Source: Rhodocyclaceae bacterium (GTDB lineage Bacteria > Pseudomonadota > Gammaproteobacteria > Burkholderiales > Rhodocyclaceae). Taken from it: 64,000 bases of DNA. Under the pieces are notes generated by a model. The model made no database searches and was not told the origin of the DNA. It saw only the letters and a program-made list of their open reading frames with translations. Below, piece by piece: positions 42,289 through 54,172 of this stretch. The translations under genes and the position numbers were made by a program. The stretch's first letter is position 1. Every line of letters starts with the position of its first letter. The stretch covers positions 186,001-250,000 of the forward strand of contig VBWA01000001.1 in NCBI GenBank assembly GCA_006218025.1, read 5' to 3'.

Positions 42289-42356
42289 GTTACCACACCG
42301 TAACCGACGGAGGCACCATGACCCAAATGACGCCCAGCTTGTTACCGAACCGTAAC
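42289..42356. promoter_or_regulatory. Tandem operators GTTAC-N6-GTAAC (sites 2 and 3)
   Basis: Site 2 (42289-42304) reads GTTACCACACCGTAAC and site 3 (42341-42356) reads GTTACCGAACCGTAAC. They start 52 bp apart, close to five DNA turns, so would face the same side. Site 3 overlaps the first codons of the divergent binding-protein gene, so binding there could also repress the sensory operon. Confidence 0.65.
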
Positions 42357-43211
42357 CGACGCCGCTGGCTGATCGACAGCGGATGCCTCGCGGCCGCGGG
42401 ACTTATCGGCCTTACACGCAAGTCGCAGGCAGCGGGCGGCAAGATCCGCGTCGGCATGACCCCGGCCTTTCTCCATGATCAGCACAGCCTGCTCGGTGAA
42501 TGGCGCGCATTCATGGCAGCGTCCCTGCAGAGGCCCGTGGAATTCGTGCAGCGCGACAGCTACCGCGAAACCATGGATCTACTGCGACTGGAAAAGCTGG
42601 AATTCGCCTGGATTTGCGACTATCCCTTCCTCCATCTCAAGGATGCGGTGCGTCTGATGGCGGTGCCGCTGTATCAGGGGCGTCCGCATTACCGTTCCTA
42701 TCTGATCGTGCAGAAGGACAACACCAAAGTCGCGTCCATGGCCGACCTGGCCGGCAGCGTGTTCGCGTATGCCGACCCTTACTCGAACACCGGTTACCTG
42801 GCGCCGCGCTACGAAATCCGCCAGTTGGGGCGAGACCCGTCCAGCTTTTTCCGCAAGACCTTTTTCACCTGGTCGCATCGCAAGGTGGTCGAGGCGGTTG
42901 CCAGCGGCTTGGCGCAAGGCGGCGCAGTAGACAGCTATATCTGGGACACCCTGGCCCATGTCGAGCCGGCACTGCCGGCGCGAACGCGCGTGGTCTGGCG
43001 CTCGCCGGAATATGGTTTTCCGCCCTTTGTCGCCCATCGCGCGGTAAGCAATGCCGACTTTCAGCTCATGCAGCGCCACCTGCTCGACACCTCGCGCAGC
43101 GAAGCCGGACGACGCCTGCTCGGCCTGCTGTACCTGGACGGCTTCACCATCGGCAGCCCGGCGCTGTATGACGGCGTCGCGCGCATGATGCGCGCCTTCG
43201 GCGAAGCTTAA
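42318..43211 (+). CDS. PhnD-like periplasmic binding protein (sensor partner, cluster 1)
   Basis: 297 residues. An Arg-rich start (NRNRRRWLIDSGCLAAAGLIGL) looks like a Tat-type signal. The mature part is a PhnD/transferrin-like solute-binding fold: KIRVGMTPAFLHDQ, FAWICDYPFL, then GSVFAYADPYSNTGYLAPRY and FFTWSHRKVVEAVASG, with GGAVDSYIWDTL. Proteins of this fold bind oxyanions and act as input domains or partners of TtrS-type kinases. It is followed at 5 bp by a histidine kinase and then an NtrC-type regulator, which points to oxyanion sensing rather than uptake. It is paralogous to 53183-54061. The ATG has GGAGG 5 bp upstream. Confidence 0.87.
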   Translation: MTQMTPSLLPNRNRRRWLIDSGCLAAAGLIGLTRKSQAAGGKIRVGMTPAFLHDQHSLLGEWRAFMAASLQRPVEFVQRDSYRETMDLLRLEKLEFAWICDYPFLHLKDAVRLMAVPLYQGRPHYRSYLIVQKDNTKVASMADLAGSVFAYADPYSNTGYLAPRYEIRQLGRDPSSFFRKTFFTWSHRKVVEAVASGLAQGGAVDSYIWDTLAHVEPALPARTRVVWRSPEYGFPPFVAHRAVSNADFQLMQRHLLDTSRSEAGRRLLGLLYLDGFTIGSPALYDGVARMMRAFGEA

Positions 43212-43216
43212 GAGCG

Positions 43217-44698
43217 ATGCGCTGGCTGTTCAATCTGTCGTTTCGCCACAAGATTCCCTTGTGGACCTCCTTCCTGATCAGCTTTTCGATTTTCGTCGTC
43301 GGCGCCGCGTTGATGACGCGCGCTTATGAAGACATGAAGCGCGCCGTGGTTATCAGCGCCGACAATCTCGGCCACACCCTCGCCAACACCGTGGCGCCGA
43401 CCTTGCTGCACGACGACGTCTGGCGCGCCTTCGAGATCGTGCGCTCGCCGATACGCGGCGAATCCGCGCGAACCCCGGTCCAGGTTGATGCCGTAGTGGT
43501 TCTCGGGCGGGAAAGCAAAGTCTTCGTCTCCAGCCACCCCGATACCCTGCCGATGCTTAGCGAGGCCGCGGCATTGGGCGCTGACTGGCGGCGACTGAGC
43601 GAGCGCCTGAGCACACCCGGCGACGAAAAGTGGCCGCTGGTGCTGGAGCCCGAGGACTCCAGCTATCTCTACCTCGTCCTGCCGATCACCGACAAGGACG
43701 CCCACTTGGGACACCTGGTGCTGCGCTACGCGAAGTCGGTGTTTCATCCCTGGTTCATCGACACCCTCTGGCAGGGCCTCGGCCTCGGTCTGCTGGTACT
43801 GGCGGTGCTGATTCCGATCAACTGGTACTGGGGCAGCCGCATGGCCACGCCGCTGGTCGATCTGGCACAACGCATGGGCATGATGCTGGAGAAGGTACCG
43901 GAACCGCTCCCCCCGGATATGTATCCCTATGATGACGAACTCGGCCAGCTATTCCAGGCCTACGACCGCATGGTGCTGGCTTTGCGCGACAAGGCGGCCC
44001 TCGAAAGCGAGGTAGTAAGGTCTGAACGGCTGGCTGCGATCGGTCAGCTCACCGCCGGCATCGCCCACGAAATCAACAATCCGCTGGCCGGGCTGATCAC
44101 CGTGATCGACACCCTCAAGCTGCACCGCGACCTCGATCCGCGCGTGTTGCGCAGCCTCGAACTGATCGATCGAGGCCTGATGCAGATTCGCGATACGGTG
44201 GCCGCCTTGCTGGTGCAAACAAAGGTGCAGGCGCGACCGCTGAACCAGCACGACCTGGAGGACATCCATACCCTGATCCAGCCCGAAATCGGCAAACGCC
44301 GCATCCGCCTCGACTGGTCCGCAACAATGCCGGTGGAATTGCCGGCGCCGGCCAGCCTGGTGCGCCAGATTCTCATCAACCTGCTGCTCAACGCCGTGCA
44401 GGCGGCGCGCGACGGCGGCCACGTCAGCCTGTGGCTGGGTCGGAAGGACGATTCTGAATCCTGCCTGTCGATTGTGGTGCGCAATGACGGCGCCCTGCTC
44501 GGCGCCGAACAGCTCGCCCATTTATTCGAGCCCTTCGCTTCCACGCGCGCCGGCGGACACGGACTCGGCCTCTGGGTGACCTACCAGATCGTCACCCAGC
44601 TCGACGGCCACATCGACGCGAGAAACGTCGGCGGCCAGGTCGAGTTCGTGGTCAACCTGCCTCTTGGAGATACCCCATGCAGCACCGCATCGGCCTGA
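43217..44698 (+). CDS. Sensor histidine kinase, cluster 1
   Basis: 493 residues. Two membrane spans (about 13-35 and 190-210) enclose a periplasmic domain that may contact the binding protein; a HAMP-like linker follows. The phosphoacceptor His is near residue 283 in AGIAHEINNPLAG. The ATPase domain has LLNAVQAARDGG (N box) and GGHGLGLWV (G box). The sequence pattern is that of NtrB-like kinases that pair with sigma-54 activators. It overlaps the regulator gene by 22 bp. It is paralogous to 51738-53186 in length and layout, including the NTxxxPxLHDDxWRAxEI segment. Confidence 0.92.
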   Translation: MRWLFNLSFRHKIPLWTSFLISFSIFVVGAALMTRAYEDMKRAVVISADNLGHTLANTVAPTLLHDDVWRAFEIVRSPIRGESARTPVQVDAVVVLGRESKVFVSSHPDTLPMLSEAAALGADWRRLSERLSTPGDEKWPLVLEPEDSSYLYLVLPITDKDAHLGHLVLRYAKSVFHPWFIDTLWQGLGLGLLVLAVLIPINWYWGSRMATPLVDLAQRMGMMLEKVPEPLPPDMYPYDDELGQLFQAYDRMVLALRDKAALESEVVRSERLAAIGQLTAGIAHEINNPLAGLITVIDTLKLHRDLDPRVLRSLELIDRGLMQIRDTVAALLVQTKVQARPLNQHDLEDIHTLIQPEIGKRRIRLDWSATMPVELPAPASLVRQILINLLLNAVQAARDGGHVSLWLGRKDDSESCLSIVVRNDGALLGAEQLAHLFEPFASTRAGGHGLGLWVTYQIVTQLDGHIDARNVGGQVEFVVNLPLGDTPCSTASA

Positions 44699-53186: not shown

Positions 53187-54061
53187 ATTTTCCGCACCCG
53201 CGCTGCCATGCGCGCGATTTCATCGAACAGGGATGGCTGGCCGACGACAAAACCATCCAGGCGCAACAGATGCAACAGTTCGGCGCCCTCGGCATCGGCC
53301 GGCATTTCGAGCAGGACGGCGCGGAAGCGCTGCAGTCCAGCCGCGGACATGTCCGGGCGCGCGACGAACGGCGGATGTCCGAATTCCGGCGAACGCTCGA
53401 TGATGCGCGTGCTGCGGGTCAGCGCGGGATGGGTCTCGGCCAGCGTTTCCCAGACATAGCCGTCTACCGCGCCGCCGTCGGCCAGACCGACGCCGACGGC
53501 CTCGACCACCTTGCGGTGCCCCCAGGTGAAGAAATTGCGGGAAAAGAAAGTCGTCGGATTCTCGCCCATGGCCGTAAGGCGATACTGCGGATAAAGGTAG
53601 CCCGAATTCGAATCGGGGTCCGAATATGAAAATACCTTGCCGCGCAAGTCGGTCAGGCTGTTCGATTTCCTGTCATCGGCGGGCACGATGAGATAGGACT
53701 GGTAATACGGCCGGCCGCGCCACAGCGGCACCGCGACCAGACGCAACTCATGCCGGTAGCGTACATAGGGATAGCCGCAGATCCAGGCGAAGTCGATCTT
53801 GCTGCCGCGAATCAGGTCCAGCACCTCGCGGTAGTTTCCCCGCTGCACGAACACCACCGGCCGCTTTAGGCGACGCTCCAGCCACACCCGCCAGCGCGTC
53901 AGAAAACTAAGCTGATCGTCGAGGAACACCGGCGTCAAGCCGATGCGCAGGACACCGGTTTCGGCGCGCACAGGCAGCAAGGGCATGGCGGCGACGGCCA
54001 GCGCGGACCGGAGAAACGTCCGTCTGCGCGACCCGGCCGAGCTGTAATCGCCTGCATTCAT
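53183..54061 (-). CDS. PhnD-like periplasmic binding protein (sensor partner, cluster 2)
   Basis: 292 residues. The signal SRRRTFLRSALAVAAMPLLP is Tat-like. The mature fold is PhnD-like: VLRIGLTPVFLDDQ, FAWICGYPYV, GKVFSYSDPDSNSGYLYPQY and FFTWGHRKVVEAVG, with GGAVDGYVWETL. These match the cluster 1 protein segment by segment, so the two are paralogues. It probably binds an oxyanion and informs the adjacent kinase. I chose ATG 54061; an upstream in-frame start at 54145 would run through the palindromes at 54113 and lacks family support. Confidence 0.87.
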   Translation of the reverse strand: MNAGDYSSAGSRRRTFLRSALAVAAMPLLPVRAETGVLRIGLTPVFLDDQLSFLTRWRVWLERRLKRPVVFVQRGNYREVLDLIRGSKIDFAWICGYPYVRYRHELRLVAVPLWRGRPYYQSYLIVPADDRKSNSLTDLRGKVFSYSDPDSNSGYLYPQYRLTAMGENPTTFFSRNFFTWGHRKVVEAVGVGLADGGAVDGYVWETLAETHPALTRSTRIIERSPEFGHPPFVARPDMSAAGLQRFRAVLLEMPADAEGAELLHLLRLDGFVVGQPSLFDEIARMAARVRKI

Positions 54062-54112
54062 GGCGATGATGATAAGCGCGAAATCCGCCGCGCCGGCTTC
54101 GATTTCGGCGAC

Positions 54113-54172
54113 GTTACGCGTGCGTAGCAAGTTGCAGCGCAGCATCGGAGACGAGTGTTACGCCAGCGTAAC
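54113..54172. promoter_or_regulatory. Operators GTTAC-N6-GTAAC between cluster 2 operons
   Basis: A perfect site at 54157-54172 reads GTTACGCCAGCGTAAC. A near-perfect one at 54113-54128 reads GTTACGCGTGCGTAGC. The half-sites equal those of cluster 1. They centre about 113 and 157 bp upstream of the predicted sigma-54 start near 54278, and 60-110 bp upstream of the divergent binding-protein gene. Confidence 0.65.

What the first reader, a model, noticed from the sequence alone, without database searches (positions are those of the whole stretch)
42289..54172. One palindrome, GTTAC-N6-GTAAC, marks both respiratory clusters
Perfect copies lie at 41980, 42289, 42341 and 54157, with a near copy at 54113. 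All sit in the divergent regions between a binding-protein/kinase/NtrC operon and a molybdoenzyme operon. The two NtrC-type proteins have almost the same recognition helix, so a shared operator and cross-regulation are plausible.
Basis: partly seen in the sequence, partly recalled or inferred. Interest (0 to 1): 0.8.

Follow-up and report, generated by a model that had tools for sequence, protein, structure and literature searches.

The report
Shared enhancer for oxyanion-sensing respiratory regulators
A rare 16-base DNA palindrome marks three gene clusters in one bacterium, each pairing an oxyanion sensor with a respiratory enzyme; comparison with relatives suggests it is the docking site of their activators and that small differences in it keep the sister systems largely apart.

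Summary
Confirmed, and stronger than stated. The 4.44-Mb genome has five perfect GTTAC-N6-GTAAC copies: four here, the fifth in a third, unlinked divergent region of the same design. Of 128 related regulator-bearing loci, 114 have a copy (<=1 mismatch) near the binding-protein gene; altered-spacer controls give 0-1 perfect copies in that DNA against 174.

Best explanation: enhancers of AioXSR-type sigma-54 activators. Copies lie 114-194 bp upstream of predicted -24/-12 promoters of the enzyme operons; clusters 1 and 3 also have one 190-200 bp downstream. The 16-bp plan equals the published AioR site.

One shared operator with cross-regulation is only partly supported. Among the few helix differences between regulators 1 and 2, N versus T (RKN/RKT) tracks operator base 6 across loci (RKN C; RKT mostly G/A), and RTT regulators have GTTCG sites. 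This predicts partial insulation. Cluster-1 enhancer sites are conserved C|G hybrids, so one-way cross-talk stays open.

All of this is sequence inference; no binding was measured. New variant of a known kind.

The parts
42289..42304 (.). Operator GTTACCACACCGTAAC: UAS site 1 of cluster 1, about -120 from the predicted sigma-54 start; C|G hybrid
   Evidence: arms invariant in the window and 12 aligned orthologues
42341..42356 (.). Operator GTTACCGAACCGTAAC: UAS site 2 of cluster 1, about -172; inside the first codons of the binding-protein gene; C|G hybrid
   Evidence: 52 bp (5 turns) from site 1; arms invariant in the same 13 rows
41980..41995 (.). Operator GTTACCTCGCGGTAAC: third site, about +190, in the predicted leader of the molybdoenzyme mRNA; C|C
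   Evidence: present in all 13 aligned rows, with one mismatch in 2 of them; similar place (+200) in cluster 3
42189..42203 (-). Predicted sigma-54 promoter TGGCATGCTTCTCGC for the cluster-1 molybdoenzyme operon; +1 near 42177
   Evidence: its GG and GC columns are invariant in the orthologue alignment
54157..54172 (.). Operator GTTACGCCAGCGTAAC: UAS site of cluster 2, about -114; G|G
   Evidence: G|G kept in orthologues
54113..54128 (.). Near copy GTTACGCGTGCGTAGC: second UAS site of cluster 2, about -158
   Evidence: a copy with the same mismatch recurs in most orthologues
54252..54266 (+). Predicted sigma-54 promoter TGGCCCGGATGTTGC for the cluster-2 molybdoenzyme operon; +1 near 54278
42318..43211 (+). 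AioX-type periplasmic binding protein 1
   Evidence: profile of the three binding proteins matches AioX structure 6esv at 258 bits
43217..44698 (+). Sensor histidine kinase 1
   Evidence: HisKA and HATPase_c
44677..45990 (+). NtrC-type regulator 1, helix ISRKNLWEKMRK, GAFTGA loop
   Evidence: REC, Sigma54_activat, HTH_8
39327..41900 (-). ArrA-like molybdoenzyme of cluster 1
   Evidence: best solved relative ArrA 6cz7 at 891 bits; NCBIfam ArrA 1017 bits, below its 1600 cut-off
38503..39306 (-). 4Fe-4S subunit of cluster 1
   Evidence: ArrB model 216 bits, below its 450 cut-off
37821..38540 (-). TorD-type chaperone of cluster 1
   Evidence: 72 bits, below the 132 cut-off
50402..51751 (-). NtrC-type regulator 2, helix ITRKTLWEKLRR, GAFTGA loop
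51738..53186 (-). Sensor histidine kinase 2
53183..54061 (-). AioX-type periplasmic binding protein 2
54363..55073 (+). 4Fe-4S subunit of cluster 2
55084..55941 (+). NrfD-type membrane subunit of cluster 2
55964..58606 (+). MopB molybdoenzyme of cluster 2, PhsA/Psr-like, substrate unknown
58708..59598 (+). TorD-type chaperone of cluster 2
   Evidence: weak matches, below cut-offs

Best explanation
GTTAC-N6-GTAAC is the operator of a family of AioXSR-type three-component systems. A periplasmic AioX-like protein binds an oxyanion, the kinase phosphorylates the NtrC-type regulator, and regulator dimers bind same-phase copies of the palindrome about 115-195 bp upstream of a -24/-12 promoter. They then activate sigma-54 RNA polymerase to transcribe the divergent molybdoenzyme operon. 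The genome has three such systems. They share the outer half-site GTTAC, but the base after it (position 6) follows one recognition-helix residue (RKN: C; RKT: G or A), so the sister systems are probably largely insulated. A further copy about 190-200 bp downstream of the start in clusters 1 and 3 is probably a brake or extra looping site. Shown: sites, their rarity, conservation, geometry relative to predicted promoters, and covariation. Inferred: binding, activation, ligands, insulation, and the role of the downstream copy.
For: All 5 perfect genome copies, and 8 of 21 with <=1 mismatch, lie in three such divergent regions. In relatives, 114 of 128 regulator-bearing loci have a copy at -700..+60 of the binding-protein match; of 24 non-truncated loci where no regulator was found (mostly more distant binding proteins), 2 do. 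N6 spacing is specific: 174 perfect copies against 0-1 for N2-5 and N7-10 in the same DNA. A sigma-54 score >=17 on the enzyme strand occurs in 104 of 123 loci, against 37 of 123 on the other strand and 9.9% of shuffles; 96 of the 104 have an operator at -60..-260. Spacings of neighbouring sites under 70 bp keep helical phase (n 89, resultant 0.68 at 10.5 bp; 27 spacings outside 39-45 bp alone also 0.68). All three regulators keep GAFTGA. The published AioR footprint has the same 16-bp plan. RTT regulators have GTTCG-N6-CGAAC instead. N versus T against base 6: C-majority in 61 of 71 RKN and 2 of 15 RKT representatives, Fisher p 1e-7; PGLS p 1.2e-7.
Against: No binding or expression data. 14 of 128 regulator loci lack a copy in the stretch: 6 are RTT regulators, but 8 (for example L088, L096, L106) have RK helices. 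The strict independent-pairs test had 4 pairs (on average 2.4 same way, 0.0 opposite) and cannot reach significance; the tree is a quick one with 32 of 98 forks open, and the PGLS rests on it. RKT operators are loose (G 30, C 9, A 9, T 2 of 50 half-sites) and RKN ones have G in 41 of 300. The cluster-1 UAS sites themselves are C|G, not C|C. Promoter calls are soft: at score >=14 every locus but also 87% of shuffles has one, and the core pattern TGGCNNGNNNNTNGC occurs 8 times in the window against 5.8 expected (21 of 100 shuffles reach 8). The weights were recalled, not fitted. One-mismatch GTTCG sites are common by chance (77 in 1.43 Mb of RK loci), so only perfect ones count. The spacings come from related loci and are not independent.
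Confidence: 0.8

Rival explanations
1. One reading: one operator bound equally by both (all three) regulators, giving full cross-regulation.
For: Identical outer half-sites; the helices of regulators 1 and 2 differ at four places only; cluster-1 UAS sites carry one G half like RKT operators; RKT loci have C in 9 of 50 half-sites.
Against: Base 6 follows the helix residue. In related genomes cluster-2-type and cluster-3-type operators keep mostly G/A/T and cluster-1-type keep C-containing ones (regulators were not read in those short loci). Orthologous enzymes differ with the regulator: cluster-3 type L087, RKN, half-sites CCCCC, against own cluster 3, RKT, TGAG.
Confidence: 0.15
2. The sites are autoregulatory (they repress or activate the sensor operon) rather than enhancers of the enzyme operon.
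For: In clusters 1 and 3 a copy ends about 10-15 bp before the binding-protein start, and one of cluster 1 is inside its codons. An AioR site upstream of an RpoD promoter of aioXSR is reported in NT-26 (PMC6011840, passages).
Against: UAS-like distance to an enzyme-side sigma-54 promoter in 96 of 104 loci; in plasmid RTT loci the perfect site lies after aioR and before the enzyme, not before aioX. Both roles may coexist.
Confidence: 0.25
3. The palindrome is bound by another transcription factor, or works as an RNA hairpin.
For: The downstream copy would lie in the predicted transcript. No binding data.
Against: Rarity outside these loci, near absence where no such regulator follows, helix/operator covariation and the AioR footprint. 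No Rfam match up to E 1 in 41800-42400.
Confidence: 0.05
4. Chance, or a recent local duplication of one sequence (42284-42309 and 42336-42361 are 88% alike).
For: The two copies form a 26-nt direct repeat.
Against: In the window and 12 aligned orthologues the arms stay while the spacers differ; chance expectation is near zero.
Confidence: 0.01

Closest known systems
AioR operator of aioBA and mcp (A. tumefaciens GW4; predicted in Rhizobium NT-26 and H. arsenicoxydans)
   Same: 16-bp inverted repeat of the plan GTT-N10-AAC bound by the NtrC-type regulator of an AioXSR system; sigma-54 enzyme promoter in H. arsenicoxydans (PMC5335332 and PMC2848651, passages read)
   Different: Footprinted site is GTTCG-N6-CGAAC; here GTTAC-N6-GTAAC, in three paralogous systems serving enzymes other than Aio, with paralogue-specific base 6
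ArxXSR / arxB2ABCD (Alkalilimnicola, Azoarcus CIB, Ectothiorhodospira)
   Same: Divergent binding-protein/kinase/regulator and molybdoenzyme operons (PMC6683785 and PMC6549141, passages read)
   Different: Neither window cluster has the arxB2-A-B-C-D gene order; both papers say the regulatory role of ArxXSR/ArxRS was not yet demonstrated
ArrX and the ArrAB arsenate reductase
   Same: Cluster-1 enzyme is nearest to ArrA among solved structures
   Different: Below the NCBIfam ArrA cut-off (1017 of 1600 bits); the neighbourhood is cytochrome-rich
Classical NtrC enhancers (recalled)
   Same: Two same-face dimer sites 100-200 bp upstream of a -24/-12 promoter
   Different: Different sequence; an extra site downstream of the start in clusters 1 and 3

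Membership tests
AioXSR-type three-component system | AioX-type periplasmic binding protein with the pocket Cys | tested here: met
   Profile of the three binding proteins against AioX 6esv 258 bits; all three keep AWIC. By my reading of the alignments Ser163 is Thr in 1 and 3, and Asp210 is Ser in 3 (pocket list from PMC5908839, passages)
AioXSR-type three-component system | Kinase plus NtrC-type regulator in the same operon | tested here: met
AioXSR-type three-component system | The sensor binds an arsenic oxyanion | not testable with these tools
   needs ITC or similar
AioR-type operator | 16-bp GTT-N10-AAC inverted repeat at the regulated promoter | tested here: met
AioR-type operator | Bound by the cognate regulator | not testable with these tools
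   only the relative's footprint is known
Sigma-54 enhancer (UAS) | -24/-12 promoter at the right distance and strand | tested here: met
   met across loci by scoring (104 of 123) and by an invariant block in orthologues of cluster 1; not significant for single window matches; no mapped start
Sigma-54 activator | AAA+ domain with GAFTGA loop and Fis-type HTH | tested here: met
Arx arsenite oxidase cluster | arxB2-A-B-C-D gene order | tested here: not met
   cluster 1: A-B-TorD-cytochromes; cluster 2: FeS-NrfD-A-TorD
ArrA arsenate reductase (cluster 1 enzyme) | NCBIfam equivalog cut-off | tested here: not met
   1017 of 1600 bits, although ArrA is its best solved relative

The most novel reading that the evidence does not exclude
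The three systems form a graded network. The recognition-helix code (RTT, RKN, RKT matched to GTTCG, GTTACC, GTTACG) insulates clusters 2 and 3 from regulator 1, while the conserved C|G hybrid enhancers of cluster 1 let the RKT paralogues also reach it, giving one-way cross-activation by other oxyanions. The C|C copy about 190 bp downstream is a paralogue-specific brake that only regulator 1 fills.
Probability: 0.15. Interest if true: 0.75.

Novelty: new variant of a known kind. Interest (0 to 1): 0.58.

Why it matters
In two 2019 papers whose passages I read, the regulators of the anaerobic arsenite oxidase Arx are described as not yet shown to control it (PMC6683785, PMC6549141). This gives candidate operators, promoter geometry and a simple residue-to-base rule for their wider family that can be checked by EMSA with two residues and two base pairs. 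It ties molybdoenzymes of unknown substrate to oxyanion-sensing systems (in relatives the same operator also stands beside an AioA and a type II DMSO-reductase enzyme), so operators can be used to find regulons and to guess substrates. It is also a natural case of how duplicated activators diverge in DNA preference inside one genome.

Tried and rejected
Rejected: chance or scattered operator; a chemotaxis link like AioR-mcp for the near copy at C3:104733 (the neighbouring frames look like a DksA-type and a molybdenum-hydroxylase gene by my own reading of the translations); an Rfam RNA element in the cluster-1 leader; clusters 1 and 2 as arx clusters (gene order). My first idea that the copy at 41980 serves a promoter right beside it was dropped: the GG and GC there are 11, not 10, bases apart (read), and the conserved promoter-like block lies about 200 bp away. 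The idea that hybrid C|G sites exist because RKT paralogues are present is weakened: five genomes in which only one binding protein was found (completeness not told, so paralogues may be missed) have them too, L130, L131 and L136 in both UAS sites, L134 and L139 in one. The phylogeny-strict pair test was underpowered.

They overlap in part (some loci recur between collections). Of 130 with a regulator, the helix was read in 127. Representatives at 90% regulator identity (110 of 127) were picked with more sites first, a mild bias towards loci with sites. The code test used the 86 RKN/RKT representatives that have intact half-sites; RKA/RKS (9 with half-sites, 6 C-majority) were left out of Fisher and PGLS. 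In one search, 3 loci with under 250 bp upstream were dropped (2 with, 1 without regulator), and from the no-regulator comparison 9 loci truncated at contig ends were dropped; 6 of those 9 have sites. In the orthologue alignment I used 12 of the 14 loci L126-L139 (not L129 and L131, which have all three sites too). In one search one of 4 loci counted as cluster-3 type (L288) is only 40% alike, and the regulators of those 26 loci were not read. I fetched 19 of 29 plasmid records with a binding-protein match.
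Full report
What is there. The window carries perfect GTTAC-N6-GTAAC copies at 41980, 42289, 42341 and 54157 and a one-mismatch copy at 54113, with essentially no chance expectation. The genome is a 4.44-Mb assembly in 141 contigs, probably Sulfuritalea or a close Rhodocyclales relative, judged by the records that hold its nearest binding proteins. It has one further perfect copy, at C139:38137. That copy and two one-mismatch copies nearby (C139:37742 and 37784) sit in a third divergent region: a binding-protein/kinase/NtrC operon on one side and a 976-aa molybdoenzyme on the other. So 8 of 21 sites with <=1 mismatch in the genome fall in three short regions. Of the other 13, 10 lie inside mechanical ORFs and none within 9 kb of a Fis-type helix match. 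The backwards control pattern is not rarer (3 perfect, 76 with <=1 mismatch).

The proteins. Regulators 2 and 3 are 51% and 54% identical to regulator 1; all keep GAFTGA and end in a Fis-type helix-turn-helix. Of the 18 Fis-type matches in the genome I saw the tails of 13 in readable frame, among which only regulator 1 has RKxLWEK; regulators 2 and 3 were read; three were not read. The three binding proteins form one family, AioX-like. A fourth good Phosphonate-bd match (C32) has no copy of the palindrome on its contig at <=1 mismatch. The enzymes differ: cluster 1 is ArrA-like, cluster 2 PhsA/Psr-like with FeS and NrfD subunits, cluster 3 only weakly related to thiosulfate reductase.

Conservation. 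I collected 164 relatives of the binding protein, own ones included. 130 have the NtrC-type regulator behind it. Of the 128 of these with at least 250 bp upstream, 114 have a site with <=1 mismatch within -700..+60, 94 a perfect one and 102 two or more. Of 24 non-truncated loci without a detected regulator, many of them with more distant binding proteins, 2 have a site. In the same DNA, GTTAC/GTAAC arms at other spacings give 0-1 perfect copies against 174, and five palindromes with other arms give 0. In the window and 12 aligned orthologues of cluster 1 the arms of both UAS sites are invariant while spacers vary; the third site is present in all 13 rows, with one mismatch in two.

Geometry. 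A -24/-12 promoter on the enzyme strand scores >=17 in 104 of 123 loci, against 37 of 123 on the other strand and 9.9% of shuffles. In 96 of these 104 an operator lies at -60..-260. In this genome: cluster 1 -120, -172 and +190; cluster 2 -114 and -158; cluster 3 -152, -194 and +200. Against this: lower thresholds do not discriminate, and a bare core pattern is not enriched in the window (8 against 5.8 expected), so the argument rests on the set, not on single promoters. Of 89 neighbour spacings under 70 bp in representatives, 87 are 31-35, 39-45, 51-53 or 62-63 bp and two are 22-23 bp, near whole helical turns (resultant 0.68). The best-fitting period in a scan of 8-14 bp was 10.1. The loci are related, so these are not independent draws. 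The pair near the binding-protein gene is best read as the enhancer of the enzyme promoter; one of the two in cluster 1 is written into the sensor gene's own first codons. 27 of the 104 loci also have a copy at +100..+310. Its role is unknown; a brake or a looping site is my inference.

The code. Operators differ in the base after GTTAC. In RKN regulators it is C in 229 of 300 half-sites of representatives; in RKT regulators G in 30, A in 9, C in 9 and T in 2 of 50. C-majority loci: 61 of 71 RKN against 2 of 15 RKT (Fisher p 1e-7, not corrected for descent). With the regulator tree (HTH left out), PGLS gives an effect of -0.46 (p 1.2e-7 at lambda 0.9, p 7.5e-6 near full Brownian). The strict pair test found only 4 supported independent contrasts, on average 2.4 concordant and 0.0 discordant, too few for significance; parsimony counts 8 changes of N/T and 14 of base 6. 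A second step of the code comes from alphaproteobacterial-type aio loci with RTT helices. None of the 6 genomic ones has a GTTAC site; 5 have GTTCG-N6-CGAAC (<=1 mismatch) right after the regulator, 3 of them perfect. One-mismatch GTTCG sites are frequent by chance (77 in 1.43 Mb of RK loci, against 4 perfect), so the perfect ones carry the weight. Of 19 plasmid loci, 13 have RTT: 10 with a perfect GTTCG-N6-CGAAC after the regulator and 3 with one-mismatch copies only. Two of the 10 (M14 and CFBP6624) share the same annotated proteins. The 5 plasmid loci with RK helices have GTTAC sites (<=1 mismatch) before the binding protein, 3 of them at least one perfect. In one (L255) the helix could not be read; it has a perfect GTTCG site. 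Those GTTCG sites match the DNase footprint of AioR in strain GW4, GTTCGGATTTCCGAAC (PMC5335332, passages). I did not see the GW4 AioR sequence itself.

Cross-regulation. Regulator 1 is RKN, regulators 2 and 3 are RKT. In 14 related genomes cluster-2-type operators are mostly G (16 G, 2 A, 3 C), cluster-3-type G/A/T (10 G, 4 A, 4 T, one of four loci only distantly alike) and cluster-1-type mixed (52 C, 30 G, 5 T, 1 A). The mixture is orderly: in the group of OWN1 and L126-L139 (13 loci with a readable helix) the UAS sites are C|G in 22 of 26 and the downstream site is C|C in 7 of 11 perfect copies, whereas other RKN loci have C|C in 42 of 69 perfect copies within 200 bp. This allows one-way cross-talk from RKT regulators to cluster 1. 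But it is also seen in genomes where only one binding protein was found, so it need not be for cross-talk.

What is known. The AioR consensus GTTN10AAC, an AioR footprint, and RpoN dependence with a TGGCACGCAGTTTGC promoter for aoxAB are published (PMC5335332, PMC2848651; passages). AioX, ArxX and ArrX as oxyanion sensors are published (PMC5908839; passages). For ArxRS/ArxXSR two 2019 papers say the regulatory role was not shown (PMC6683785, PMC6549141; passages). In the listings of my searches for the motif in five spellings (no paper), ArxR/ArxX, AioR sites, ArrR/ArrX and helix specificity of such activators, and in the passages I read, I saw no description of this operator in paralogous systems or of the helix code. 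The library lacks most subscription journals and I read no paper in full.

Verdict. A real, conserved operator family; a known kind of element in a new setting (three co-resident systems, varied enzymes) with a testable specificity rule. Binding, ligands and enzyme substrates remain inferred.

Noticed in passing
L016 (G000:C139:29000-48000), 5000-12150: Third binding-protein/kinase/NtrC operon divergent from a 976-aa molybdoenzyme, found by the genome-wide search; its binding protein has Ser where AioX has pocket Asp210 (my alignment reading).
   Followed up: partly
L127, L128, L129 against window 39327-46000: Close relatives of the cluster-1 binding protein (89-91% identity) stand beside a different enzyme family (PhsA-like FAM2) instead of the ArrA-like one: sensor and operators were kept while the enzyme differs.
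   Followed up: partly
window 42060-42160: Besides the operators, blocks around GTCGGCGC and TTTCACGAT are conserved in the predicted leader of the cluster-1 enzyme mRNA in many of the 13 aligned rows; no Rfam match.
   Followed up: partly
window 34959-35387 and 37417-37824: Two similar cytochrome c genes flank a multiheme/cytochrome b561 gene; a 145-nt stretch is 79% alike, which suggests duplication.
   Followed up: no
window 49826-49884 and 60110-60168; L051 about 1081-1130: A dispersed element (AGTTATGCG.AGCGGTATCCCCT..GGGACGGCGCC) occurs at several places of the genome, translated in one frame as LC.AVSP.GTAP (one pattern search with a too strict spelling found nothing).
   Followed up: no
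window 62666-62743: Two tandem 39-nt repeats containing GTAGGGCCGACTTCAGTCGGC.
   Followed up: no
L250 (Azoarcus sp. KH32C plasmid pAZKH): A cluster-2-type sensor/enzyme arrangement lies next to arsenite efflux genes, a hint at an arsenic-related role of this unassigned molybdoenzyme.
   Followed up: no
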